Source of the DNA: Brasilonema sp. UFV-L1
Lineage (GTDB): Bacteria > Cyanobacteriota > Cyanobacteriia > Cyanobacteriales > Nostocaceae
DNA: 38,567 nt
Assembly (NCBI RefSeq): GCF_012912105.1
Contig: NZ_QMEA01000059.1
Location: 1 to 38,567 of the forward strand
Direction: 5' to 3'
Both the position numbers and the translations under genes were made by a program. Below, piece after piece: positions 887 to 13,896 of this stretch; position 1 is the stretch's first letter, and each line of letters starts with the position of its first letter. Under the pieces are notes generated by a model that saw only the letters and a program-made list of their open reading frames with translations, did no database searches and was not told the DNA's origin.

Positions 887-1120
887 ATGGCGATTATCAA
901 AATAGATGAACTGCGTCCCACTGGTGCTGAATTGTTCCAAGATTCTGAAAGCTTCCTCAATGAGTTAAGCGATTCGGAAATGTCAATTTTTGGAGGTAAG
1001 GACAAGGATAGTGATCCTACTGTTCTTAGTATAGACACCTATAGTATATCGATTTATTCGGAGAGTGTTATTACCAACTACTACGATGTAGATATTAAAA
1101 TTAAAGTGAAAAATAAATAA
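887..1120 (+). CDS. RiPP precursor peptide 1 (Ser/Thr-rich, Cys-free, double-glycine leader)
   Basis: Encodes a 77-residue peptide. The start at 887 is preferred over an in-frame ATG at 803 because GAGG lies 9 nt upstream and the resulting N terminus (MAIIKIDELRP) matches precursor 2. Leader residues 1-37 contain ELRPTGAELFQDSESFLNEL, probably the enzyme recognition region, and end in the exporter-type cleavage signal GG at 36-37. The 40-residue core has nine Ser/Thr and no Cys. Core residues 47-63 form the motif shared with precursors 2 and 3 (Ser/Thr at motif positions 2, 5, 7, 9, 12, 14 and 17). The C terminus is Lys/Asp rich. It is presumably phosphorylated and dehydrated by the products of the kinase and lyase genes downstream, then trimmed and exported by the C39 transporter. 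The modification is inferred; the peptide family resemblance is direct. Confidence 0.88.
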   Translation: MAIIKIDELRPTGAELFQDSESFLNELSDSEMSIFGGKDKDSDPTVLSIDTYSISIYSESVITNYYDVDIKIKVKNK

Positions 1121-1832
1121 AGCTTCTTCGCTGACATGAGAATACTTGTCATAGTTGTATTCTATGAAATAGTTAGATTTCAACTCCATTGTTGGCAGAC
1201 AATGCTGTTCAGTTAAAGTCTTTATTAAGATTGTCTGGATATAGAGACGCTTCAAATAGCTCGTCTCTACAAAGGCTATCGTTCTTAACAGTTATTTTAT
1301 CTGAACAGTATTGTTTTTATCGAGACATCATTTTCCCTGTATTACCATAAGGTAGAAATCGATTGTTTTGACGAGTCATTAAAATTTCATATCACCTGAT
1401 ATTGAGGTAGTCAAGAAATTTTTTTTAAAAATCTAATCTCTTTTGACTAAACGTAAACAAAGTAGAGACAATTCTTTAAGACTTACATAGAAACCAGGTT
1501 TTTCAAGTTTATCTGAAAAACCTGGCTATTGTTGTGTTTATATGTAAGTTTTCTTGTTGAATCATCTCTACTTTTTCTTTTTTGAATTTAAAAAGACAAA
1601 ATTTCTTCACTATAGTCTATTTCAGAGCTATGACTCAAACTTGCTTCCTGACTGAGATCTACAATTACATCAATAGATATCTCCACTTGAAGGTTTGCTC
1701 TCATTCATGAAACAGAAATATTCTAGTTCCACTGCCAAAACATCTTAAAATGTCATTTTGGTAAGTATTTTCAGCTTTTTTTTGATAAAAATTATTGTTA
1801 TCAAATATTTAAAATTGAAGACAAAATAACCA
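1121..1832. other. Intergenic region between precursors 1 and 2
   Basis: No further precursor was found on either strand; the 90-codon minus-strand frame at 983-1255 overlaps precursor 1 antisense and lacks family features. The region holds a short GTAGAGACG-type hairpin (1242-1249 with 1262-1269) and the large imperfect palindrome at 1459-1574. Confidence 0.5.
1459..1574. repeat. Imperfect 116-bp palindrome between precursors
   Basis: The outer arms AAAGTAGAGA (1459-1468) and TCTCTACTTT (1565-1574) are exact inverses. Nested inside, ACTTACATA pairs with TATGTAAGT, and CCAGGTTTTTCA (1494-1505) pairs perfectly with TGAAAAACCTGG (1514-1525). It is a foldback or MITE-like element, or a structured transcript region. 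Confidence 0.6.
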
Positions 1833-1866
1833 TAATTGTGCCAAAAAAGTAGATCAAAAAAGCTTG
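1833..1866 (+). promoter_or_regulatory. 34-bp conserved box, copy 2 (upstream of precursor 2)
   Basis: TAATTGTGCC at 1833-1842 and AAAAAAGCTTG ending at 1866 have the same spacing as copy 1 at 748-781. It ends 101 nt before the precursor 2 start codon, nearly the same distance as in copy 1. Confidence 0.6.
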
Positions 1867-1967
1867 TTTTTCTAACTGAAATCATTCATTATGAAATCAA
1901 GGATGAAACAAACAAATGTTAAATCCTTGCATCACCAAACACACTATTGTTTATCAGGAGAAAGAAC

Positions 1968-2201
1968 ATGGCTATTATCAAAATCTCTGAACTGCGTCCA
2001 GCTGGTTCTGAATTGTTCCAAGATTCTGAAAGCTACCTTAACGAATTGAACGAACAAGAAGTTTCCATGGCAATTGGTGGAGAAGGTGGAAGTGACGTTA
2101 CCAGTTCTGTGATCAGTATTAACTCTCAAACTGTATCACTTCAAACACAGAGCGTTATCACTCAAGTGAAAACAGATGTCACCAAAAACGTCACTTGGTA
2201 A
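1968..2201 (+). CDS. RiPP precursor peptide 2 (Ser/Thr-rich, Cys-free, double-glycine leader)
   Basis: Encodes a 77-residue peptide. The start at 1968 has a strong AGGAG site at 1956-1960; an in-frame ATG at 1947 is rejected because it lies upstream of that site. The leader (1-38) is almost identical to that of precursor 1 through ELFQDSESYLNEL and ends in IGG at 36-38. The 39-residue core has 14 Ser/Thr, no Cys, and ends in Val-Thr-Trp. Residues 49-65 carry the shared motif with Ser/Thr at positions 2, 5, 7, 9, 12, 14 and 17, and further Thr residues continue to the C terminus. Of the three it has the most dehydratable residues. It stands alone between two gene-poor stretches, so it probably has its own promoter (box at 1833-1866). 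Confidence 0.88.
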   Translation: MAIIKISELRPAGSELFQDSESYLNELNEQEVSMAIGGEGGSDVTSSVISINSQTVSLQTQSVITQVKTDVTKNVTW

Positions 2202-2444
2202 TCTATTTAGTATTTTTGAATGAGACATAGAGAGCAAGTAAATTAACTGTTTCATACATTTAAGTCTTGTTCTTCGCTGTTACTCACATTTGTACCTAAA
2301 TACAACATTGCACAAATTCGTAGCGTCATAGTTCGTAGTTGCGATGACTGCGCGCTCAGCGCAATTACAAAGCTTTATGGCGATACGAATTTATGAAATG
2401 CAGTACTAAGTTACTGGTACATATTAATGTGACTAGTCAAATAG
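2202..2444. other. Intergenic region after precursor 2
   Basis: No gene is seen. The sequence is AT-rich with one GC-rich patch (about 2345-2360) and leads to the hairpin at 2445-2469. Confidence 0.45.
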
Positions 2445-2469
2445 AATCGGAGCTGTTTCAGCTCCGATT
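2445..2469 (+). terminator. Hairpin between precursors 2 and 3
   Basis: AATCGGAGCTG (2445-2455) and CAGCTCCGATT (2459-2469) form an 11-bp perfect stem with a TTT loop. It is followed by ATTCTTAATAA rather than a clean U-tract, so it may be a partial terminator or an RNA-stabilising structure separating precursor 2 from precursor 3. Confidence 0.5.
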
Positions 2470-2556
2470 ATTCTTAATAATGAAGGATTTTAGTTCTCAG
2501 TCTGCAAATTAAATTATAGACAGTTCTTAAACCAAGTTCATGAAGAGAGGATTAGA

Positions 2557-2826
2557 ATGTCTAGCATTAAAATTTCTCAGTTACGTCGTCCAGTGGGTTC
2601 AGAACTATTCGAGGATACTGAAAGCTTTTTGCATGAGCTAACAAGCGAGGAGATTCGAGAGATTAAGGGAGGTTTGATAGTCAGTGTTGTTAGTGAAAGT
2701 ATGTCAATTTATACTCAATCACAAATAGTCATTCCGGTTAATGATCGTGCTATTTTTGCAGAAGATATTAGCCTAGATAACAAAACTGCTGCTCTGCTTC
2801 TAGAACAAAATATAAAGTTTATATAA
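2557..2826 (+). CDS. RiPP precursor peptide 3 (divergent, longer core, Cys-free)
   Basis: Encodes 89 residues; AGAGG lies 8 nt before the ATG. The leader keeps the family pattern (ISQLRRPVGSELFEDTESF, then HELTSEE) and ends in IKGG at 36-39. The 50-residue core has eight Ser/Thr and no Cys. Residues 42-58 match the motif of the other precursors, with all six fixed Ser/Thr positions kept (2, 5, 7, 9, 12, 14) and Val at position 17. Unlike the others, the core then continues for about 30 residues with acidic and aliphatic segments, so this member may have a C-terminal follower or a different product. It is the precursor closest to the modification operon. Confidence 0.82.
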   Translation: MSSIKISQLRRPVGSELFEDTESFLHELTSEEIREIKGGLIVSVVSESMSIYTQSQIVIPVNDRAIFAEDISLDNKTAALLLEQNIKFI

Positions 2827-2884
2827 AATCAACTGTAGTCTGATATTAAGAAGAGGGCAACTTGTTTTTTAGACACATCTGTGG

Positions 2885-2918
2885 GAATTATGTCTGAAAA
2901 ATAAATGCATAAAGCTTG
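2885..2918 (+). promoter_or_regulatory. 34-bp box, degenerate copy 3 (upstream of the kinase gene)
   Basis: AATTATGTC near the left end and AAAGCTTG at the right end have the same 34-bp spacing as the copies upstream of precursors 1 and 2. It ends 187 nt before the kinase start codon. It could coordinate the modification operon with the precursors. Confidence 0.45.
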
Positions 2919-3105
2919 ACTTGCTAGCTTCATTACCTTAAGGATAAAAGAAAGAGATAATCTCAAGCTTAGTAAAAGCTTTAGATTATATTTTTTTCAT
3001 AAAAATCTGTAAAAAACAGAAAGATTTTCCAATTTATACATTTTGGTGTTATCAAAAAATCAACACTAAAAAACCTGTTTTTGTATTTTTTGATAGTTTG
3101 AATTT

Positions 3106-4287
3106 ATGGCATTTGTATTAAGTTCTTTAAATGTTTTCGAGTATCTGATTAAGCAGGGACTCTGTTCTTCAGAAGCAGAGGCTCAGAGTAAAATAGAAAG
3201 AAAACACGCCAAAAACTTTAACTTGTTACTGAATTTGCCAGAGGGGCGTCAACTTCTTGTCAAGCAAGAACCTAGAGCTAAAGATGGTGAAACAGCAGGG
3301 GAGTTTTTACGAGAGTGGCGAATTCATGAATTTTTCAAAGAATTTCCAGAATTAAACGAGATTCGTGACTCAATTTCGGCTGCGCTCTATTTTGATGCCC
3401 AAGAGTCCATCATTGTTTTTAATTATTTGAATGATTACCGCGACTTAATCGATTTCTACGCCAAAGAAAATATCTTCCCGCCCGCAATTGCCACTGCCCT
3501 GGGTACTATTCTAGCCAAAATTCATCGCCTAACTTTTGAGCGTAAAGACTATCAAGAATTTTTCTCTGGAAAGCAAGAGGAAGTAACTGATGTCGCTCAT
3601 TTTTTGGTAAAAAGGTTGGAACGTATTGGTCCAGAAATGTTTGGTTTGGTTCCCGCTGATGGAATTAAATTCTTTGCTCTTTATCAACGTTATGACAGCT
3701 TGGGGCAAGCGATCGCAGAACTTGCTTCTTCTTTAAACTCCTGTTGTTTGACACACAATGACCTGAAGCTGAACAATATCTTATTGTCCACTCATTGGGA
3801 GCAGGCTGAATTTCAAGAGTCATCATCCGATAATAGCAAGCTGCGAATCATTGATTGGGAACGTTGCAGTTGGGGAGATCCAGCATTCGATTTAGGTTTT
3901 CTTATCGGTAGCTATTTACATATTTGGTTGGGCAGCTTGATGGCTGGTAAAGCGATGAGTATCGATGAATCTCTGCGCTTAGCAATAACTCCTCTAGAAC
4001 AATTGCAACCATCCCTGAGTGCTTTAGTGATTGCTTATTTGACCCACTTTGAAGAAATTTTAGATCGTCGCCCTGATTTCTTGCGACGAGTGGTGCAATT
4101 TTCGGGTTGGTCGTTGATTAGCATTATTCAAGCAACCCTTCAATACCAAAAATCCTTTGGCAATCGTGGGATTTGTATGCTTCAGGTGGCTAAGTCTTTA
4201 TTATGCCGTCCCGAACAATCCATCCCAACGATTTTTGGCAAGCAAGCATCAGAACTCACTCCCACAAGCTTCTCTCCACTCGCTTAA
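3106..4287 (+). CDS. APH-fold kinase, probable RiPP Ser/Thr kinase (LanK/TvaC-like)
   Basis: Encodes 393 residues with the aminoglycoside-phosphotransferase/choline-kinase fold. The N-lobe has a candidate ATP-binding Lys53 (LLVKQE). The C-lobe has the catalytic loop H217-N-D219 with N224, and the Mg-binding D250-W-E252 followed by GDPAFDLG. In class V lanthipeptide and thioamitide pathways a kinase of this fold phosphorylates core Ser/Thr and works with a HopA1-type lyase; the partner gene here begins at its stop codon (TAATG overlap at 4285-4289), which strongly suggests coupled translation and a complex. Substrates are inferred to be the three adjacent precursors. No strong ribosome-binding site is seen before the ATG. 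An antibiotic-resistance role is possible from fold alone but is unlikely in this context. Confidence 0.82.
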   Translation: MAFVLSSLNVFEYLIKQGLCSSEAEAQSKIERKHAKNFNLLLNLPEGRQLLVKQEPRAKDGETAGEFLREWRIHEFFKEFPELNEIRDSISAALYFDAQESIIVFNYLNDYRDLIDFYAKENIFPPAIATALGTILAKIHRLTFERKDYQEFFSGKQEEVTDVAHFLVKRLERIGPEMFGLVPADGIKFFALYQRYDSLGQAIAELASSLNSCCLTHNDLKLNNILLSTHWEQAEFQESSSDNSKLRIIDWERCSWGDPAFDLGFLIGSYLHIWLGSLMAGKAMSIDESLRLAITPLEQLQPSLSALVIAYLTHFEEILDRRPDFLRRVVQFSGWSLISIIQATLQYQKSFGNRGICMLQVAKSLLCRPEQSIPTIFGKQASELTPTSFSPLA

Positions 4288-5414
4288 TGACATACCAAGC
4301 ACCCATGCAACTATTAAATTCGCTGCAAACTCAACCACAAACTGCGCCTGATTTAGTGCAGACATCACTGCAAGATATCATAAATAAGCTGCAGATTGAA
4401 TCTCATGTGTGTATTCGTCATCCAGACTACAAACCCTTAGAGTTGCCATCTGAGGCTGTCGCGCGCTTTCAAAAATTGCCCTCTGATTTGCAGAATAAGT
4501 ATCTCAATGTGCAACTGCGTAATTTTCTTTACGGTACTTATTACAACGGTTCACTCAAACGTATCTTGGCATCAGATACAGATACAGATGATACGAATTT
4601 AGCACTGAACCAGAATTTAGAAGAGAATAACACTTTTTTAGGTGTAGATATAGCGTTTTATGACCGCTTGCATAAAAGCAATACCGGTGAAGGGTACTTT
4701 AGCCCCGGTTGGATAGTCGTAAAAGAAGAAACTGATGGGGCAATAGCGGTACAACATGGAGGATTGACACTGCATATCGAACGCGATCGCCATTTGCCAC
4801 CAGAAAACCAAACCGTAAATATAGGTGACGTGGTAGCCATCAAAATGCCCAAGAATTTGGTGCAAAGCGGCTTTTATATGGCAGTTAGCAATGCAGGATC
4901 CTATCGCGAAGCAAATATCGTACGCATTTACTTTAACTTAACAACTGAAGGCGCAGTTGCAGTCATGAATAGCTTAACTGCTGAACTGAACGCCATCCCA
5001 ATTCCCTTCAACTTTAAGGCGCTATACAACCCCCAAGATTATGGGCGTTACGACTCTGCGGTGCTTTATTTTGATAAAAACAAGTATGAAATTTTCCGTG
5101 CTGTACTAGAGAGAGTATACACACAAAATCAATCTCATTTTCAACCTGAAGTGCCTTTATTTACGAAGTTTCTTGCACCAGGATTAGCACTCGCTGAAGA
5201 ACCAGACCAAAAATTTGGAGAACAAGAAAGTTTTGGTATGAATCGTTGCCAAATAGTGGCGAATGCAATACTTGAAACTTGGCACCAAGGAGACAATTCT
5301 CCAGAAAGTCGGATGACATCAATTCAGCAACAATTCTCTTTGCTAAACATTGAATTGCAACGTCCTTATCTCAATGCCAGTTCTGAGGATATCTACACCC
5401 CGTTGAACTTATGA
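4287..5414 (+). CDS. HopA1-family protein, probable phospho-Ser/Thr lyase (LanY/TvaD-like)
   Basis: Encodes 375 residues. The start at 4287 overlaps the kinase stop by one base; an upstream in-frame ATG at 4203 would overlap the kinase by 85 bp and is rejected. Features fit the HopA1 effector family: RNFLYGTYYNGSL near 78-90, the segment with FYDRLHKSNTGEGYFSPGW (124-142), DVVAIKMPKN (181-190), FKALYN...YGRYD (243-256) and a late GMNRCQIVANA (317-327). Candidate catalytic residues by analogy with OspF/HopA1-type lyases are H129, K186/K189 and K244; this is inference. The expected reaction is elimination of phosphate from phospho-Ser/Thr to give dehydroalanine or dehydrobutyrine. It overlaps the next gene by 4 bp (ATGA). 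Confidence 0.78.
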   Translation: MTYQAPMQLLNSLQTQPQTAPDLVQTSLQDIINKLQIESHVCIRHPDYKPLELPSEAVARFQKLPSDLQNKYLNVQLRNFLYGTYYNGSLKRILASDTDTDDTNLALNQNLEENNTFLGVDIAFYDRLHKSNTGEGYFSPGWIVVKEETDGAIAVQHGGLTLHIERDRHLPPENQTVNIGDVVAIKMPKNLVQSGFYMAVSNAGSYREANIVRIYFNLTTEGAVAVMNSLTAELNAIPIPFNFKALYNPQDYGRYDSAVLYFDKNKYEIFRAVLERVYTQNQSHFQPEVPLFTKFLAPGLALAEEPDQKFGEQESFGMNRCQIVANAILETWHQGDNSPESRMTSIQQQFSLLNIELQRPYLNASSEDIYTPLNL

Positions 5415-6445
5415 AAATCACGAATCTTGTCCCCAATACTGAGCAAAAACCCGTCAACCAAGAGGATGAACTTGCCCTTGCTAACAGTAGATTCCCAAAG
5501 TCGGACTTACCTTTTTACCGCAAACTTGGGCGAACTGACTTAACGGTTAGTTGTTTGGGATTGGGTGGTGGTGGTCATATTTCCAGTGAAAATACCCTGT
5601 ACGCTTTTGATCAAGGAATTAATTACTTTTTCTATTCCAGTGATCTGCATCAATATCTATACAGTTCTATGCGAGAAGCACTCCGCAAATTATGCGGACG
5701 CGGTTCCTCGGTGCGCGAAAAGGTGGTTCTGGCAACTGTCACTTATATGATCAGAACTCCAGACACAGTAACCACTTATTTATTTGACCAGTTTGTAGAC
5801 TTGGGTATAGACTACGTTGATGTGTTTTTCTGGGGCTGGATTGATGAACATAATGCGAATTCTTTCGAGAAGTGCATCAGCGCCTCTAATGATATTCGGG
5901 GGCGTGATACGCTTTGTCAGCGAAACATAGAAAGAATGTTTGGCGTTTCAGAACGTTTGAAAAAAATGGGTGCTGTACGCTATATTGGTGCTTCTTTCCA
6001 CGACCACGATTTAGCACAGCAGTGGTTAAATAGTTCATTGTTAGATGTTGTCATGGTTAGGCATAACATTGCACATCGCACAGCTCAAAAAAAGGTTTTC
6101 TCTCATTTGGATGCGAAAGATCCACACCGCCCAGGTATCGTTACCTTTAAGTCAGCTGGTATGTTTAATGCATTATGGCATCCTCCAGCAGGCTTACCAT
6201 CTCAATGCTGGCAACCTTCAGTCCCAGATTTATATCGCTATTCCTTGAGTCAGAATTGTGTAGATGTGGCATTAGCTGGTTGGGAAAAGCGTGAACATAT
6301 AGACGCCGCGATTAAGGCTGTCCAAAAGGGTAAATTAACGCCTCAGGAAATAGAATACCTCAATTTATATGGCGACATGCATCGCAACCGCGTCAATATC
6401 CAAGAAGTTCCACCAGAAAAACTTTTTGTCCACAGTTCTAAATAG
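5411..6445 (+). CDS. Aldo/keto-reductase-fold protein lacking the catalytic tetrad
   Basis: Encodes 344 residues. The family is clear from FYRKLGRTDLTVSCLGLGGGG (35-55), RYIGASFHDHD (190-200) and GWEKREHIDAAI (290-301). The active site is not conserved. Where family members read GINFFDTA..Y, this protein reads GINYFFYSS (69-77), so the Asp is replaced by Phe. The Lys in the usual LATK is Val110 (VLATV). The His in the usual DLLYLH is Trp141 or Gly142 (DVFFWGW). It starts within the lyase stop codon (ATGA), so it is made together with the modification enzymes. It may be a structural partner, a cyclase-like scaffold, or a reductase with a rearranged site acting on dehydro residues. The function is unproven. 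Confidence 0.75.
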   Translation: MKITNLVPNTEQKPVNQEDELALANSRFPKSDLPFYRKLGRTDLTVSCLGLGGGGHISSENTLYAFDQGINYFFYSSDLHQYLYSSMREALRKLCGRGSSVREKVVLATVTYMIRTPDTVTTYLFDQFVDLGIDYVDVFFWGWIDEHNANSFEKCISASNDIRGRDTLCQRNIERMFGVSERLKKMGAVRYIGASFHDHDLAQQWLNSSLLDVVMVRHNIAHRTAQKKVFSHLDAKDPHRPGIVTFKSAGMFNALWHPPAGLPSQCWQPSVPDLYRYSLSQNCVDVALAGWEKREHIDAAIKAVQKGKLTPQEIEYLNLYGDMHRNRVNIQEVPPEKLFVHSSK

Positions 6446-6536: not shown

Positions 6537-7334
6537 ATGCACGATTTGGAAGAATCTTACAAAACAAAAGACCTTATTGCCCAATCGCAAAAAAATCAAG
6601 AATTTTCTTTACCAGAAATTCCTTCCGCAACAGAACAAGATGTGATTGCATATCTGCGTCGTTCTGCTAAATTTGCTGAAATGGCTGCTGCGACTGAACG
6701 GGATGCATTAATCTTATCCATTTGCGAAAAATTAGGAATTAATGTGTCCGAAGAAGAATGGCAAGAAGCTGGAGATGTTTTTCGCCAGAAACACAAGTTA
6801 TGGGGAATTGAAGAAACTTTGGCGTGGTTAAACCAGCAGCGTATTAGTGTAGAGGAATGGTCAGAAGGAATTAGAGTAGAACTTTTAGACAAAAAACTTA
6901 AAGAATATTTATTTGGTGCAGCTGTAGATGGTGAATATACCCTCAATCGCGATCGCTACGCAAGAGTAGCACTATCACAAATTCTAGTTCCTGATCTGGC
7001 AACTGCTTGGAAAATTGTTCAGATACTGCGCGAGGAACACACTTCTTTCTGTGCTTTAGCTTTGGAATACTCCAAGGGTAAAAAATCCCAAGAAAACGGT
7101 GGCTTTGTCGGTATTCGTTATGTAGTAGAACTCTTACCGGAAATTGCTGAAGCTATCAACAACGCGAAAGAAGGCGAAATCATTGGTCCGGTTCAAAGTT
7201 CATTAGGTTATCACGTTCTCAAAGTAGAAAAGTGGTTCCCCATTGAATTAAATCAAGAAGTCAGAGAGCAAATAATAAACGTATCATTTCAACTTTGGCT
7301 ACAAGCTTGGAAAGATACGAAACCTCTAGATTAG
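6537..7334 (+). CDS. Parvulin-type peptidyl-prolyl isomerase / foldase 1
   Basis: Encodes 265 residues. The N-terminal half is helical (about 30-135, SurA-like chaperone region). The C-terminal half is a PpiC rotamase domain (about 145-245) with NGGFVGIRYVVELLPEIAEAI, then EGEIIGPVQSSLGYHVLKVEKW. The first parvulin active-site His, normally in a HILV motif, is Gln here (SQILV), so isomerase activity may be weak and a chaperone or leader-binding role is possible. No signal peptide is seen, so it probably acts in the cytoplasm. It lies 91 bp after the AKR-like gene in the same direction. PpiC-like proteins next to HlyD and C39 exporters are a recurrent arrangement in cyanobacteria. Confidence 0.85.
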   Translation: MHDLEESYKTKDLIAQSQKNQEFSLPEIPSATEQDVIAYLRRSAKFAEMAAATERDALILSICEKLGINVSEEEWQEAGDVFRQKHKLWGIEETLAWLNQQRISVEEWSEGIRVELLDKKLKEYLFGAAVDGEYTLNRDRYARVALSQILVPDLATAWKIVQILREEHTSFCALALEYSKGKKSQENGGFVGIRYVVELLPEIAEAINNAKEGEIIGPVQSSLGYHVLKVEKWFPIELNQEVREQIINVSFQLWLQAWKDTKPLD

Positions 7335-7565: not shown

Positions 7566-8357
7566 TCACGCTGCATCCACTGATTGTGATTGTTCTGTTT
7601 TTGATTGAACATTGCTGTCTAAATTTAGCTGAGTCAGAATTTTAATTTCTGCAATTTGTTGCTTTAACCAATTTGCAAATAAATCCCCCAAAATCTTAAC
7701 ATATAATGGCTGATCTAATTGTGGTTGAATAATTTCCTCAACCCAAATGAGATGTGATCCTTTTTGTGTACTTATTGGCTTAAGGATTTGTGGAGGATTA
7801 GCAGCAAAAACCGCTGCAGCAATTTCTGGTCTAAAATCTGTGCGACGTTGGATTCCTTGATAACCACCTGCACGGCGAATATCTGGATTTTGAATATATT
7901 GCCGAACAATATCTTGGAATGTGATTTCTTTTTCTTCTACACAATCATACAATTCCATAGCTAAATCTTCATCATCTAAAATCACTTCATATGTGACTGC
8001 TCCCGTAAAATCAAGTATGTGTTCGTAAAAAAAGTGTTCGACTTTATCTGCAAATAGATGCATCGCCAATTTATTAGAGATGACATTGATTTGTGCTATT
8101 TCTTCAAAGTTATCTACTGAAAGATGATATTTTTCCAACCATGCCCAAGTATCCTCGGCTTTCAAGAGGTTATGTGCTAATCGCAAACTATCTGCCGATT
8201 GCTGAAGTTCTTCTTTTTCAGCTTTAATGCCAGCTTGGTTAGCAGCATCAAGAATAATTTTTCGAGTGGCAATACCTTCCAATAAAGTAGGAATTTGGCA
8301 AGAAATTTTGAGTTGATAAAAAATGTCTTCCTGGGATACGTTTAAAACTTGTAACAC
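7566..8357 (-). CDS. Parvulin-like peptidyl-prolyl isomerase / foldase 2
   Basis: Encodes 263 residues. It starts at a GTG with GAGGTGA just upstream. The N-terminal helical region (about 1-120) resembles foldase 1, including TWAWLEKYHLSVDNFEE against TLAWLNQQRISVEEWSE there. The PpiC-like part (about 125-225) has AGGYQGIQRRTDFRPEIAAAVF and KGSHLIWVEEI. The classical catalytic His/Cys set is not obvious, so chaperone function is as likely as isomerisation. It is the last gene of the minus-strand exporter cluster, 169 bp downstream of the HlyD gene. It may hold or deliver precursor peptides to the exporter. Confidence 0.8.
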   Translation of the reverse strand: MLQVLNVSQEDIFYQLKISCQIPTLLEGIATRKIILDAANQAGIKAEKEELQQSADSLRLAHNLLKAEDTWAWLEKYHLSVDNFEEIAQINVISNKLAMHLFADKVEHFFYEHILDFTGAVTYEVILDDEDLAMELYDCVEEKEITFQDIVRQYIQNPDIRRAGGYQGIQRRTDFRPEIAAAVFAANPPQILKPISTQKGSHLIWVEEIIQPQLDQPLYVKILGDLFANWLKQQIAEIKILTQLNLDSNVQSKTEQSQSVDAA

Positions 8358-8526: not shown

Positions 8527-10086
8527 TTACAAATCTAGACCTCCTTTTTGCAGTTTTTTAAACGGATCTAAAACATAGTCAATCACTCGGCGTTGGCGGA
8601 CAATAACCTCTGCTGTTGCTGTTTGACCGGGAGTCAAGAGAATGCGTTTGCTGCCATTTTGAATGTAAGATTGAGCTAAAGTAATTTCCACCTCAAAAAT
8701 CTCCATGTTGCCTTGCTTGGTTTCTACCACTTTGGAGTCTGGTGAAATTCGACTAACGTGTCCGAGTACAACTCCATAATCTTGGAAGGGATAGGCATCA
8801 AACTTGACTTTGACAGGGTTTCCCACTTGCAAAAAACCACTTTCTTGACTAGGTAATTGCGCTCTGATCACCAGAGGATCTCCCTTGGCTGCAATTTGGG
8901 CAATCATCTGACCGACTTGTACTACAGCTCCTGGCTTTTGAAAAGGAAATGCAAAAATGACACCGTCAATCGGCGATCGCACAATCCGTTGGTTCAACTG
9001 AATATTCAAGGATATTTCTTGGCTTTTTGTCTGATTGATTTCTGATTGCAGTGTTTTGATTTGTGTTTGCAATTGTTTGAGTTCTTCTTCTGTTTTCAGG
9101 TATGCTAATTGACCTGTATAAAGCTGAGTTTGGTAATTGCGTTGTTCTTGTTGCAAGCGGAGTTCGGCTTGTTGGATTTCAGATTGAGCTTGATGAAGCA
9201 TCTTTTGATAAGCACTTTGTTGCTCTTTAAGGCTTTCTTCCGTCTGAAAAGTGTCAGAACGAGCTTTTATAAGGCGTTCATGGTTTTCTTTCGCCAACTG
9301 ATCTGTTTCTAAGTAACGATCTTGAGACATGACACCATCCCTCCAAGCTTGTTCATAACGTGATACTCTTTCTTGAGAAGCTTGAAAACTCACTCCTGCG
9401 AGCTTTTCGGCTGCCTTGTTAGACTCAACAGCTCGCTGCATCTGATTGACTTTAGCCAGTTTTTCTTGTTTCTGTAAGTTGTAGACAGATTTAAGAGAAT
9501 TGAGATTCTGTTGCGCCTGTTCTATCCGAGAAAGTTGTGCTGACTGTTGAGCCTGGTTTTGTTGCTGTTGAGTGCGCATAGACAGCGTCAACTGTTTTTT
9601 GAGTAGTTCTAAATTCTCCAGTTTATTTTGCAGCCCTTCTAGCTTTTTTAAAACTTGTTCTAAATCAGTTTTTAAGACATTTGAGTCCAACTCTAATAGA
9701 ATCTGATCTGACTTGACGCTTTCACCTTCTTTAACGTTTACATGAGTCACACTCGCGCTGACTGGACTATCCAATTTTTGTGTTGCTTTTAGCGGTTCTA
9801 GACGCCCTCTCGCGCTTCCTATCTCATCTACTTTAGACAGTACCGCCCAAGGTAAGACGACTCCACTCAAGCTAAGTAGGAGATACATAACAGAACGCGG
9901 CCAAACTCGCGGTAAAGCATCTAACAATTCTTCAGTCGCGTAATACCAATCGCTCGCTTTACCTACTGTATCTGTCCCAAGTGTATCTGTCCCAAGTGTA
10001 TCTGTCTGATGGTGAAGCACCTCAGAAGTCTCAACCTTCTGAGGTGGGAGGAGTACAGATGATGAACTCTGAGATGAGTGTGGCAT
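8527..10086 (-). CDS. HlyD-family membrane fusion (adaptor) protein
   Basis: Encodes 519 residues. The cytoplasmic N terminus (1-60) carries the short tandem repeat TDTLGTDTLGTDTVG. One membrane helix lies at about 66-84. A biotinyl-lipoyl half-motif (SASVTHVNVKEGESV, about 109-123) precedes a long Gln/Lys-rich coiled coil (about 130-360). The second half-motif (RSPIDGVIFAFPFQKPGAVVQVGQMI) and the beta-barrel region follow. Such adaptors link an inner-membrane ABC exporter to an outer-membrane channel. The gene follows the C39 exporter by 83 bp and should form the secretion machine with it; an outer-membrane TolC-like partner is not in this window. Confidence 0.92.
   Translation of the reverse strand: MPHSSQSSSSVLLPPQKVETSEVLHHQTDTLGTDTLGTDTVGKASDWYYATEELLDALPRVWPRSVMYLLLSLSGVVLPWAVLSKVDEIGSARGRLEPLKATQKLDSPVSASVTHVNVKEGESVKSDQILLELDSNVLKTDLEQVLKKLEGLQNKLENLELLKKQLTLSMRTQQQQNQAQQSAQLSRIEQAQQNLNSLKSVYNLQKQEKLAKVNQMQRAVESNKAAEKLAGVSFQASQERVSRYEQAWRDGVMSQDRYLETDQLAKENHERLIKARSDTFQTEESLKEQQSAYQKMLHQAQSEIQQAELRLQQEQRNYQTQLYTGQLAYLKTEEELKQLQTQIKTLQSEINQTKSQEISLNIQLNQRIVRSPIDGVIFAFPFQKPGAVVQVGQMIAQIAAKGDPLVIRAQLPSQESGFLQVGNPVKVKFDAYPFQDYGVVLGHVSRISPDSKVVETKQGNMEIFEVEITLAQSYIQNGSKRILLTPGQTATAEVIVRQRRVIDYVLDPFKKLQKGGLDL
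9966..10005. repeat. 15-bp tandem repeat inside the HlyD gene
   Basis: Two nearly perfect copies and a partial copy of GTATCTGTCCCAAGT encode the TDTLG repeats. Slippage would change length by five residues without breaking the frame. Confidence 0.7.
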
Positions 10087-10169: not shown

Positions 10170-13100
10170 TCAAACTGTTTGAGCTAACTGTTGCTGATTC
10201 AAGTAGAAGTAATGACCTTTTTTGGCGATTAATTCATTGTGGGTACCGCTTTCCACTAACACGCCTCGATCCAAAACCAAAATCAAATCCGCGTTGCGTA
10301 CAGTGGAAAGGCGATGGGCAATAATTAAGCTAGTACGACCTTGAAGAATGGTTTTAAGGTTTTTCTGAATAATGCGTTCTGATTCACTATCCAAATGACT
10401 AGTTGCTTCATCAAGAATTAAAAAGCGGGGATTACCCAACAATGCACGAGCGATCGCTAAGCGTTGGCGTTGTCCACCAGAAAGCATTCCGCCTCCTTCA
10501 CCAATTTGAGTTTCATAACCCATTGGTAGTCGCTGAATAAACTCATCTGCACCAGCCAAATGGGCGGCTGTGATAACTTCTTCAACAGAGGCTTCTGGGT
10601 GAGCGATGCTGATATTTTCCTGAATTGTACCACCAAATAGAAAGGTGTCTTGATCGACAACGCCAATTTGCTGTCGGAGCGATCGCAGGGAGATAGCAGT
10701 CAGATCGTGACCGTCAATTAACACCTTACCATCTGTAGGAAGATATAAACCTAACAACAGCTTGGAAAGAGTAGTTTTTCCAGAACCACTTCGCCCCACG
10801 ACTGCCACAGTTTGTTCGGGCTGAATTTCAAAACTGAGATTTTCCAGCACGTTGTTTTCACTTTCTGGGTGATAGCGGAAAGTGACACGCTCAAAGCGAA
10901 TTCTCCCTTGAAGCTTCGGCAATAATCGACGAGATGAAGATTGTAAATTTTCTTCTGGTTCTGCTTCCAACACATCGTTAATACGTTCGGTAGAAACGAG
11001 AACTTCTTGCAATTGGTTCCATAGTGTACTCAAACGCTGAAAAGGCTGAATAATATGGCCCAACAACATATTCAGAGCAACCAATTGCCCAATCGTGAGC
11101 TGCTGTTGAATCACAAGCCACGCCCCAAACCATAGCAATCCCGTGGTGACTAGCGATTCAATTGTAGAAGCAAAAATTTGCATTTGGTTGTTCACCAGCT
11201 GCCCGTGGAACATTTTTTTGATCAAGTTATTCAGCAATTCCTCCCAATGCCAGCGCACCGTCTGCTCAATAGCCATTGAGCGAATTGAGCGAATTCCTGT
11301 CAGAGATTGAATTAAATAACTATTCTCATCAGCGACAGCGTTAAAAATCTCACGGCTGATGCGGCGAAATAAAGGTGTAGCAATAAGTACTAGCAGAAAA
11401 AAGGGCGGCACAATTAACAGGACGAACAATGCCATTTGCCAGTTGTACCAGAACATTAACCCTACGTAAATAAACACTGTCAGTAAGTCCAGACAAATTG
11501 ACAGTGCCTCACCTGTCAGAAAACTCTGAATCTTCTGATTTTCTTGAACACGAGAAATAATGTCCCCAACATAACGCGATTCAAAGAATGAGAGAGGTAA
11601 TGCGAAAGTGTGTTTAATAAAACCCACCATCAATGCCATCCCGACTCGGTTTGCTGTGTGATCCAGCAGATATTGCCGCACTCCGTTCATCGCAATCCGG
11701 AACAAACTAAAAATCACCAAACCAAAGCCAACAGCGTTGAGTGTCAGGGTACTTCCTTGGACAATCACACGGTCTAACAACAGTTGAGTCAGTAAAGGCG
11801 TCACCAGTCCAAACACCTGAATTAACACTGAAGCGATGAACACTTCTAGCAGTATCCAAGCGTGTGGTGTGACTAACTCAAAAAACTTCCAGAAGGGTGT
11901 ACCCTCTTGTTGAGCGTCTTTGAGTTCTATTGTGGGTTGTAATAATAATGCATAACCCGTCCAACCAGCTTTGAATTCTGCCGTAGTCAGAGTCCGTTGA
12001 CCAATCGCGGGATCGCCAACAATCACTTGTTTGGGAGTGATTTCATAAACAACGATGAAGTGCTTTCCTTCCCAATGCGCGATCGCAGGCAGAGGTTGTT
12101 GTCCAAGTTTATCAAGACTAGCTTTTACCGGACGTGTAGAAAAACCAATGCTTTCTGCAGCTGCTGTCACACCTCGCAAAGATGCCCCACTACGACTGGT
12201 GTTAGCGACATCCCGCAATCTGTTGATACTAAAGCGTTTGCCCCAATAGCGACCAATCATGACTAAGCAGGCTGCACCACAGTCAGAAGCACTTTGTTGT
12301 TCAAAGAAAGGATACCGTTTGGTTAAGTGTCCCCACAGTTGACCGAAAGTTACCTTTGGGGTAGGAAAATATGCTCGTCGTACCTTTTGCTCTTGTTTTG
12401 GTAATGCATCTGATGGCGGAAATGGAATAACGTTGTTAATAACATTGTTAATAACATTGTTATTAGTTAATGGTTCTGCAAATGCTTTAGAAGTGGTCTG
12501 ATTGTTATTGATACTTGAAACAGAACTGGTGAATTCTGCTAATTGTGACCAGTGTTCTTGTGCTGGAGAAATCAGAGAATTCTTTAGAATGTAAACAATT
12601 GTTGGTTGCTTTACTTGCCAACTACCTGGCTTTAGATCCGCATAGATAATACCCGGTGTCAAATAGCTACCATCAGAATGCTGGACTTGACCCCGACGTA
12701 GTAGCCACAATTTGGCATCTTTTGGAACAGACAACTCACCTAGTGTCTCTATATTATGCCTCTCGAAGAGTGACAAGGCTTTGAGCATTTCTTCGGGAGA
12801 ACTCTTATTTTGTTGAGAATTCTTTTGATATAACAGCAGCAAATCCCACAGTTCTGCACGTCTAGTAAGGTTAGAGCGGATGTTAGGATATTTACCCATC
12901 AAAGCCTGTAATATCTCTGCCTTGAAATAGCAAAGCTTTAAGCCTGTAGAAGCTCTAGCAGCGTATTGCTCAAAACTATCTTCTCGAAACAGAGTAGTCT
13001 CTCCAAATGATGCTCCTACAGAAAGGGTGGTGATGCGGTTATTAGCGCTATCTAGCAGTCTGACTTTACCTGCAAGGACAATGTAGATACCAGAAACAGC

Positions 13101-13250
13101 ATCTGTTGCTTGCCAGAACACCTTTGCTACTGGTGGCTCGATGATTTCTACTGAGTCCAAGCAGCTTTGTAGTTCTTGTTGTGAAAGTGTCTCACTCAAA
13201 ATTGCAGTGAATTTTTCACCGAGAGTCGCTTGAGAAAAAACAGAAGTCAT
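10170..13250 (-). CDS. Peptidase-containing ABC exporter with cyclic-nucleotide-binding domain (HetC-like)
   Basis: Encodes 1026 residues. A cAMP/cGMP-binding fold lies at about 15-130 (GIYIVLAGKVRLLD, SFGETTLF). A second small regulatory-like region lies at about 150-225, then a linker with VINN repeats (265-275). The C39 peptidase domain at about 315-440 has C324 in SDCGAAC, H397 and D413, the catalytic triad for double-glycine leaders. The transmembrane domain is at about 445-740. The nucleotide-binding domain has GRSGSGKTTLSKLL, LSGGQRQRLAIARA and FLILDEATSHLD. It should cut the precursor leaders after GG and export the cores. The start is supported by GGAG overlapping the upstream stop. 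HetC, a heterocyst protein, has the same general architecture, but the RiPP context favours peptide export. Confidence 0.93.
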   Translation of the reverse strand: MTSVFSQATLGEKFTAILSETLSQQELQSCLDSVEIIEPPVAKVFWQATDAVSGIYIVLAGKVRLLDSANNRITTLSVGASFGETTLFREDSFEQYAARASTGLKLCYFKAEILQALMGKYPNIRSNLTRRAELWDLLLLYQKNSQQNKSSPEEMLKALSLFERHNIETLGELSVPKDAKLWLLRRGQVQHSDGSYLTPGIIYADLKPGSWQVKQPTIVYILKNSLISPAQEHWSQLAEFTSSVSSINNNQTTSKAFAEPLTNNNVINNVINNVIPFPPSDALPKQEQKVRRAYFPTPKVTFGQLWGHLTKRYPFFEQQSASDCGAACLVMIGRYWGKRFSINRLRDVANTSRSGASLRGVTAAAESIGFSTRPVKASLDKLGQQPLPAIAHWEGKHFIVVYEITPKQVIVGDPAIGQRTLTTAEFKAGWTGYALLLQPTIELKDAQQEGTPFWKFFELVTPHAWILLEVFIASVLIQVFGLVTPLLTQLLLDRVIVQGSTLTLNAVGFGLVIFSLFRIAMNGVRQYLLDHTANRVGMALMVGFIKHTFALPLSFFESRYVGDIISRVQENQKIQSFLTGEALSICLDLLTVFIYVGLMFWYNWQMALFVLLIVPPFFLLVLIATPLFRRISREIFNAVADENSYLIQSLTGIRSIRSMAIEQTVRWHWEELLNNLIKKMFHGQLVNNQMQIFASTIESLVTTGLLWFGAWLVIQQQLTIGQLVALNMLLGHIIQPFQRLSTLWNQLQEVLVSTERINDVLEAEPEENLQSSSRRLLPKLQGRIRFERVTFRYHPESENNVLENLSFEIQPEQTVAVVGRSGSGKTTLSKLLLGLYLPTDGKVLIDGHDLTAISLRSLRQQIGVVDQDTFLFGGTIQENISIAHPEASVEEVITAAHLAGADEFIQRLPMGYETQIGEGGGMLSGGQRQRLAIARALLGNPRFLILDEATSHLDSESERIIQKNLKTILQGRTSLIIAHRLSTVRNADLILVLDRGVLVESGTHNELIAKKGHYFYLNQQQLAQTV
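12428..12468. repeat. 12-bp tandem repeat encoding VINN units
   Basis: Three units of the AATAACATTGTT type lie in the linker between the nucleotide-binding domain and the C39 peptidase of the exporter gene. It is in frame and probably variable in length. Confidence 0.6.
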
Positions 13251-13254
13251 TTGC

Positions 13255-13896
13255 TTAGCTCCATTTTAAGAGCGAGTTACTCGTCGGCATGAAATGAAAT
13301 GACAACTGAAAATTATGCGCATCTGTGGATTGAAGATCATCAATTTTAATACCATCATCCTTCGTGTGGTTGGTGACTTGTTCGCGGTCTCTATTGCGTG
13401 TTTGTTTGGTAGAAAGCCCCATTTGTTTTAGCAAACGGTTGATGTGGCGATCGCTGATTTCAATACCAAATTCTTGTGCCAAATGTTTACTCAAACATTG
13501 GGCTGTCCAATAACCAAATGCATAGCCGTACTCTCGTGGACTGTCGCTGACTAATTCTTTTAACCGTTCGATGTATTGATCATTGACTGTCTTCGGTCTA
13601 CCGATAGGTCGTTCTAACCATTTGTCTGCCAGACCTGCTTGTGCTACAGCAATCCAATACCGTGCCATTTCCTGGGAACAACCCAATATTTGACAAATTT
13701 GGGTTTGAGTTTTCCCCATATCCGCTAGCAACATAATTTCCATTCGCCGACGGTATTCAGGTTGCAAATTCGCTTGCAAATTCTTCAGCAACACCTGACG
13801 TTGAAAAGGTGTTAAATATTTACCGACATTATTATAGTCGTAGTTTTCAAAAGCTCGCTCTACAAGAACTTGTTGTTTGCTGGAATGGTGTGTCAT
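13255..13896 (-). CDS. Helix-turn-helix protein resembling the N-terminal part of IS630-type transposases
   Basis: Encodes 213 residues. The first HTH is at about 58-88 (MGKTQTQICQILGCSQEMARYWI). RPIGRPKT follows, then a second winged-HTH region at about 105-165 ending in EISDRHINRLLKQMGLSTK. No DDE catalytic domain follows; the protein ends in a polar tail after residue 170. It lies 4 bp before the exporter start codon on the same strand, so it is probably cotranscribed and may regulate the exporter or RiPP genes. Alternatively it is a leftover transposase fragment, but the intact frame and tight operon spacing favour a domesticated regulator. Confidence 0.75.
   Translation of the reverse strand: MTHHSSKQQVLVERAFENYDYNNVGKYLTPFQRQVLLKNLQANLQPEYRRRMEIMLLADMGKTQTQICQILGCSQEMARYWIAVAQAGLADKWLERPIGRPKTVNDQYIERLKELVSDSPREYGYAFGYWTAQCLSKHLAQEFGIEISDRHINRLLKQMGLSTKQTRNRDREQVTNHTKDDGIKIDDLQSTDAHNFQLSFHFMPTSNSLLKWS

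What the first reader, a model, noticed from the sequence alone, without database searches (positions are those of the whole stretch)
887..6445. Candidate new RiPP subclass: class V-type kinase and lyase acting on cysteine-free precursors
The sequence shows three precursors with double-glycine leaders next to a coupled APH-fold kinase and HopA1-type protein. In known class V lanthipeptide and thioamitide pathways this pair dehydrates Ser/Thr and cysteines then form thioether rings. None of the three precursors here has a single Cys, so lanthionine cannot form within them. The product would be a linear or otherwise crosslinked peptide rich in dehydroalanine and dehydrobutyrine. No methyltransferase, YcaO or decarboxylase gene of the usual companions is present in the window.
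Basis: partly seen in the sequence, partly recalled or inferred. Interest (0 to 1): 0.88.

Follow-up and report, generated by a model that had tools for sequence, protein, structure and literature searches.

The report
Cysteine-free dehydrated peptide gene cluster
A cyanobacterial gene cluster carries the enzymes that normally prepare small peptides for sulfur-bridged rings, but its peptides lack the cysteine that such rings need, and an odd reductase-like partner protein hints that the activated residues are turned into something else.

Summary
In detail: three Cys-free double-glycine precursors, then a coupled APH-type kinase, HopA1-type lyase and aldo-keto-reductase (AKR)-fold protein. The lyase model best matches LxmY of the lexapeptide dehydratase; catalytic residues of kinase and lyase are kept. 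Three Cys-free precursors alone prove little (chance 0.09), but in the window's lyase clade 122 of 123 cores lack Cys (32 loci). The group is already described (Eyles 2021, Family 1A: no conserved Cys), so it is not a new class. New here: window-type cores keep seven Ser/Thr positions with S/T interchange; adjacent Ser/Thr are about threefold depleted in AKR-associated Cys-free cores, not in Cys-containing ones; the AKR has lost the usual AKR Asp, Lys and His. In 74 of 74 cyanobacterial loci found with it, the AKR lies by a Ser/Thr dehydratase, whole or partial: kinase/HopA1 (68) or the unrelated LanM (6). By the AKR, 8 of 11 LanMs have lost zinc ligands of the lanthionine cyclase, against 2 of 40 controls. 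Best reading: a dehydratase making thioether-free peptides, with the AKR-fold protein acting on the dehydro residues; reduction to D-amino acids is the boldest open reading. New variant of a known kind.

The parts
887..1120 (+). precursor peptide 1 (77 aa, GG leader, no Cys)
   Evidence: leader model E 7e-19
1968..2201 (+). precursor peptide 2 (77 aa, GG leader, no Cys)
   Evidence: leader model E 8e-20
2557..2826 (+). precursor peptide 3 (89 aa, GG leader, no Cys)
   Evidence: leader model E 6e-16
3106..4287 (+). APH-fold Ser/Thr kinase (LanK-like)
   Evidence: K53, H217, D219, N224 and D250 kept in 159-160 of 160 homologues
4287..5414 (+). HopA1-type phospho-Ser/Thr lyase (LanY-like), 375 aa
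   Evidence: PF17914 4.4e-62; R213, K244, R254, Y261 match the CaoY catalytic set; model best matches LxmY 9dk1-3
5411..6445 (+). AKR-fold protein without the usual catalytic Asp, Lys and His
6537..7334 (+). PpiC-type peptidyl-prolyl isomerase; weak match to the TIGR04500 peptide-maturation family, below cut-off
7566..8357 (-). second PpiC-type protein
8527..10086 (-). HlyD-type adaptor of the exporter
10170..13250 (-). C39 peptidase-containing ABC exporter (PCAT) with N-terminal cNMP-binding domain; expected to cut after GG
13255..13896 (-). IS630-like HTH protein next to the exporter, possible regulator
   Evidence: relatives in 31 AKR-bearing loci

Best explanation
A RiPP cluster whose kinase phosphorylates Ser/Thr of the precursor cores and whose HopA1-type lyase eliminates the phosphate, giving dehydroalanine/dehydrobutyrine as in class V lanthipeptides. 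The cores have no Cys and the cluster has no cyclase, so no thioether rings form within them. The AKR-fold protein then acts on the dehydrated peptide, and the C39 exporter cuts after Gly-Gly and secretes the product. Shown by sequence: gene set, coupling, catalytic residues, Cys-freeness, the Ser/Thr pattern, and the AKR's partnership with two unrelated dehydratases. Inferred: dehydration of these precursors, export, and any action of the AKR. The chemical fate of the dehydro residues (kept or reduced) is not shown.
For: Lyase fold and catalytic set equal to LxmY/CaoY; kinase motifs kept; in some relatives kinase and HopA1 are one fused protein. Leader profile finds only these three precursors in the whole genome. 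Window clade: 122 of 123 cores Cys-free. Seven Ser/Thr columns kept in 18-22 of 22 hand-picked window-type cores with S/T interchange, and no S/T in ten of eleven filled columns between. Adjacent S/T depleted in AKR+ Cys-free cores (62 seen, 199.5 expected), not in AKR+ Cys-bearing cores (69, 72.6) or the AKR-less sister cores (31, 28.4). The lyase set is intact in 82 of 82 AKR+ rows (72 after merging identical ones). The AKR accompanies kinase/HopA1 (68 of 74) or LanM (6 of 74); LanMs by the AKR lost cyclase zinc ligands in 8 of 11, controls in 2 of 40.
Against: No biochemistry. AKR+ loci are not all Cys-free: 70 of 239 precursors have Cys, mostly one, so some relatives could form a ring. Three of 11 AKR-linked LanMs keep all zinc ligands, one of them (L160) among Cys-free precursors. 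24 of 53 lyases of AKR-less loci with leader precursors do not show the full catalytic set (distant, alignment less sure). The S/T contrast compares core families that also differ in other ways. Family 1A as published was not compared directly.
Confidence: 0.72

Rival explanations
1. Dehydroalanine/dehydrobutyrine stay in the product; the AKR-fold protein is a non-catalytic scaffold or leader-binding partner.
For: The AKR has lost the Asp, Lys and His of the tetrad although its fold is kept; AKR-less sister loci still carry Cys-free precursors.
Against: Strong conservation of the putative pocket (FF[YF]SSDLH, WGW, RHN, TFK) over 84 sequences, and pairing with two unrelated dehydratases, look like a chemical role rather than docking to one enzyme or leader.
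Confidence: 0.32
2. Dehydro residues are attacked by side chains other than Cys (Lys, His, Tyr), giving e.g. lysinoalanine crosslinks.
For: All 61 cores of the AKR-less part of the window's clade (32 loci in the whole clade) contain Lys.
Against: In the AKR+ part of that clade 27 of 61 cores have no Cys, Lys or His, and 22 of 61 also no Tyr or Trp, so this cannot be the common chemistry there.
Confidence: 0.1
3. An ordinary class V lanthipeptide cluster whose Cys-bearing precursor was overlooked.
For: The enzymes are class V type; many relatives have one Cys.
Against: The leader profile finds only three precursors in the genome; no LanD, LanX or LanC by the cluster; LanC domains in the genome lie in LanM-sized frames on other contigs.
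Confidence: 0.04
4. The AKR-fold protein reduces an N-terminal keto cap formed from an N-terminal dehydro residue, as carbonyl reductases do in some lantibiotics (recalled).
For: AKRs reduce carbonyls.
Against: The first core residue is Ser/Thr in 22 of 237 AKR+ cores, and the carbonyl-reducing residues are lost.
Confidence: 0.04

Closest known systems
Family 1A HopA1/phosphotransferase clusters of Cyanobacteria (Eyles et al. 2021, PMC8153245)
   Same: HopA1 plus phosphotransferase, cyanobacterial, several non-identical double-glycine precursors, variable cores without conserved Cys
   Different: The section read does not mention an AKR, a Cys-free clade or a Ser/Thr pattern; the authors' data files were not seen
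Class V lanthipeptide dehydratases LxmKY, CaoKY (PMC9486802 sections 6-7 and passages; PDB 9dk1-3)
   Same: Kinase and HopA1-type lyase with the same catalytic residues and fold
   Different: Their substrates carry Cys and their clusters carry LanD/LanX or LanC; none here
Type B linaridins such as corynaridin and legonaridin (PMC9927463, passages)
   Same: Linear dehydrated peptides without a C-terminal Cys; a short-chain oxidoreductase gene is typical
   Different: PxxxTP cleavage site and other enzymes; here a GG leader with kinase/HopA1
LanJ dehydro-residue reductases (LanJA, LanJB, LanJC; PMC11519912, passages) and bicereucin (structure recalled)
   Same: They would do what is proposed for the AKR: reduce Dha/Dhb to D-Ala/D-Abu after dehydration
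   Different: LanJ are zinc/NADPH, flavin or F420H2 enzymes; none has the AKR fold

Membership tests
Class V lanthipeptide (Va) | LanK (PF01636) and LanY (PF17914) dehydratase pair | tested here: met
Class V lanthipeptide (Va) | LanD cysteine decarboxylase and LanX kinase-like cyclase (passages of PMC12291118) | tested here: not met
   not among 30 window proteins scanned; the genome's two PF02441 flavoproteins lie on other contigs; one kinase only at the locus
Class V lanthipeptide (Vb) | LanC cyclase with the pair | tested here: not met
   two LANC_like domains in the genome, both in LanM-sized frames on other contigs
Lanthipeptide (any class) | Cys in the core for (Me)Lan | tested here: not met
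Lanthipeptide (any class) | (Me)Lan in the product | not testable with these tools
   needs mass spectrometry or NMR
Eyles Family 1A | HopA1 beside a phosphotransferase in a cyanobacterium, several double-glycine precursors | tested here: met
Eyles Family 1A | sequence clustering with the published 570 peptides | not tested
   the peptide data set was not held
Type B linaridin | PxxxTP leader cleavage site | tested here: not met
   GG leaders
Thioamitide | YcaO/TfuA pair | tested here: not met
   no YcaO or TfuA among 30 window proteins
Active aldo-keto reductase | Asp-Tyr-Lys-His catalytic tetrad (recalled) | tested here: not met
   Asp position F/Y, Lys position V (84 of 84), His position G (84 of 84); a Tyr (Y84) is invariant and could be the catalytic one
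LanJ-like dehydro-residue reductase | NAD(P)H- or flavin-dependent reduction of Dha/Dhb | not testable with these tools
   genomic context only

The most novel reading that the evidence does not exclude
The AKR-fold protein is a new family of dehydroamino-acid reductase with a rebuilt active site. Paired with kinase/HopA1 here and with cyclase-dead LanM elsewhere, it turns Ser/Thr-derived dehydro residues into D-Ala/D-Abu, giving ring-free ribosomal peptides rich in D-residues. In relatives with strictly alternating cores (L113, L114, L132) the product would be an alternating D/L peptide of the gramicidin type. In the window's own clade the Ser/Thr spacing (3 and 5 favoured) does not fit strict D/L alternation.
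Probability: 0.4. Interest if true: 0.87.

Novelty: new variant of a known kind. Interest (0 to 1): 0.7.

Why it matters
Kinase/HopA1 clusters tend to be filed as class V lanthipeptides. This group shows that dehydration can be uncoupled from thioether formation across a large cyanobacterial clade, and that one AKR-fold protein accompanies two unrelated dehydratases, one of them with its cyclase decayed. If the AKR reduces dehydro residues, it would be a genetically encoded way to place many D-amino acids in ribosomal peptides, and it can be tested by coexpression in E. coli.

Tried and rejected
Polytheonamide/gramicidin-like D/L alternation for the window itself: rejected for its clade, since spacings of 3 and 5 are favoured (z 4.4 and 8.0) and 2 is not (z -0.2); it remains open for L113, L114 and L132.

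'Cys-free is rare and therefore new': rejected, 135 of 171 leader-bearing precursors lack Cys. 'The AKR is specific to Cys-free precursors': rejected, 70 of 239 precursors of AKR-bearing loci have Cys. Because I raised the odds of the reductase reading from about 0.15 to 0.4.

'HopA1 fused to LanC' for the roughly 800-aa HopA1 proteins: two tested are kinase-HopA1 fusions. PHROGs gave nothing for the lyase. In one search most canonical AKRs were extracted wrongly (longest ORF picked); only L177 and L182 are usable there. Dropped before counts: two cores with masked letters, ten loci that duplicate others (judged by eye from identical core lists), and identical lyase rows in the tree (153 rows kept). 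Some leader hits are chance (e.g. L166 at 316). The pattern used for LanM-type precursors is imperfect: it missed the one precursor of L162, whose tail holds a Cys. The 22 cores were picked by hand. Of the 40 LanM controls, 20 came from the middle and 20 from the lower part of the listed ranking.

Full report
Anatomy. Three precursors (77, 77 and 89 aa) share a leader of the form MAIIKISELRPAGSELFQDSESFLNEL...GG and have no Cys. A kinase gene (3106-4287) overlaps a HopA1 gene (4287-5414) by one base (TAATG), which overlaps an AKR-fold gene (5411-6445) by ATGA. Downstream lie two PpiC-type foldases, an HlyD adaptor, a C39-peptidase ABC exporter and an IS630-like HTH protein. The whole genome (8.3 Mb) holds no further precursor with this leader profile (3 hits, all here).

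Enzymes. The lyase model (mean pLDDT 75) best matches chain B of the lexapeptide dehydratase LxmKY (9dk2/1/3, E 2e-14 to 5e-14), followed by two Pseudomonas syringae effector structures. The catalytic residues reported for CaoY (Arg187, Lys219, Arg229, Tyr236; PMC9486802 section 6) correspond to R213, K244, R254 and Y261. The kinase keeps K53, H217, D219, N224 and D250 (159-160 of 160 homologues).

Cys-freeness. For the window alone it is weak evidence (P = 0.09). In a sample of 388 genomes of the same class, 68 carry HopA1; 96 stretches were fetched. With the window, 97 loci gave 171 leader-bearing precursors in 69 loci; 36 precursors have Cys and 46 loci are wholly Cys-free. An AKR search of named genomes gave 75 loci, 74 cyanobacterial, with 218 precursors, 65 with Cys. 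In the lyase tree the window lies in a clade of 33 rows (SH-aLRT 97, quick method, many branches open); 32 of these loci have leader precursors, 123 cores, one with Cys; a wider set of 50 rows has 167 cores, four with Cys.

Ser/Thr pattern. Aligning 22 hand-picked window-type cores gives seven columns with Ser/Thr in 18-22 of 22 rows, Ser and Thr interchanging, while ten of the eleven filled columns between have none; the exception holds Ser/Thr in three rows, the window's own, whose spacing there differs slightly. In cores made non-redundant, adjacent Ser/Thr are depleted in AKR+ Cys-free cores (62 seen, 199.5 expected, z -13), not in AKR+ Cys-bearing cores (69, 72.6) or AKR-less cores of the window clade (31, 28.4); segments of ordinary proteins give 314 against 343. 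This suits isolated modification sites, but core families differ in other ways too. In the AKR+ part of the clade 27 of 61 cores have no Cys, Lys or His, which argues against side-chain crosslinking as a general fate.

The AKR-fold protein. Its model (mean pLDDT 83) matches AKRs (best 7svq, E 4.5e-14). Among 84 sequences (duplicates included) the Asp position is F/Y, the Lys position V (84 of 84) and the His position G (84 of 84), while FF[YF]SSDLH, WGW and RHN are nearly invariant. One Tyr (Y84) is invariant and could be the catalytic Tyr; cofactor binding is undetermined. It is the weakest PF00248 match of 12 in the genome. The AKR loci always hold a dehydratase: of 74 cyanobacterial loci, 68 have HopA1 at least in part (65 with a near lyase and kinase; three are cut, broken or rearranged) and six have none. 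The six (L155 and L156 are two contigs of one strain) hold a class II LanM (DUF4135 + LANC_like) near the AKR (L156 was read as a copy of L155, not scanned). In the eight distinct LanM-AKR loci, 8 of 11 LanMs lack at least one of the three cyclase zinc-ligand positions (SWC and LC[C/H]G motifs, recalled), against 2 of 40 LanMs away from the AKR (one-sided Fisher 1e-5; related rows are not independent; AKR absence is for 20 controls and by the coordinates listed for the rest). Their precursors are mostly Cys-free (by eye, by pattern: 4 of 46 with Cys, the pattern missing some). Against this, three of the 11 keep all ligands, and L160 keeps one intact LanM although none of nine precursors found there has Cys.

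Reading. The same AKR-fold protein goes with two unrelated ways of dehydrating Ser/Thr, and in the LanM loci the ring-closing half decays. The simplest account is that it acts on dehydro residues instead of Cys. Reduction to D-Ala/D-Abu is the closest known precedent (LanJ types A, B and C, passages of PMC11519912), but the residue losses also allow a scaffold.

Literature. Eyles 2021 Family 1A (PMC8153245, passages and section 16) covers this group. Liang 2022 (PMC9486802, passages and sections 6-7) collected only Cys-bearing ORFs for the alignment in which type B is cyanobacterial. The class Va/Vb definitions are from passages of PMC12291118. Ten searches listed no paper on an AKR in such clusters; only listings were seen, and subscription papers are mostly not held.

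Noticed in passing
L061 (second HopA1 locus of the same genome) and 21 further loci: A HopA1 clade in which the catalytic Lys is replaced, mostly by Gln, still paired with a kinase but with no leader precursor, lies among phylloquinone/menaquinone genes (MenE, MenC, MenF, MenA and a thioesterase near a varying part of them). Its role is unknown.
   Followed up: partly
L078:9658-12096, L081:7779-10229; similar lengths in L072, L074, L079, L088, L089: Roughly 800-aa proteins fuse the kinase (N-terminal) and HopA1 (C-terminal); two were scanned. Nearby precursors have Arg-rich, Cys-free cores.
   Followed up: partly
L113, L114, L132: Cores with strict every-second-residue Thr/Ser, runs of 7-13, several ending in alternating Trp, reminiscent of gramicidin.
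   Followed up: partly
L128, L158, L160, L193, L195, L196: LanM proteins without cyclase zinc ligands beside Nif11/NHLP-type, mostly Cys-free precursors and the AKR-fold gene.
   Followed up: partly
L100, L106, L120-L122, L125, L129 and others (15 loci): A nif11-class radical SAM maturase (TIGR04103) with Nif11 precursors and a small partner protein lies near the AKR cluster, spliceotide-like by recall; not in the window.
   Followed up: partly
window 13255-13896: IS630-like HTH protein next to the exporter; relatives in 31 AKR-bearing loci, so possibly a domesticated regulator.
   Followed up: partly
L259 (G252:C3:2951300-2970400): A LanM with intact zinc ligands lies near a kinase/HopA1 pair without the AKR; the precursor there has four Cys (L069).
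   Followed up: no
G393:C201:34212-34622, G395:C1:251952-252356, G398:C73:8718-9125: A second, distant AKR-like family of about 270 aa matches the C-terminal half of the AKR profile at about 67 bits.
   Followed up: no
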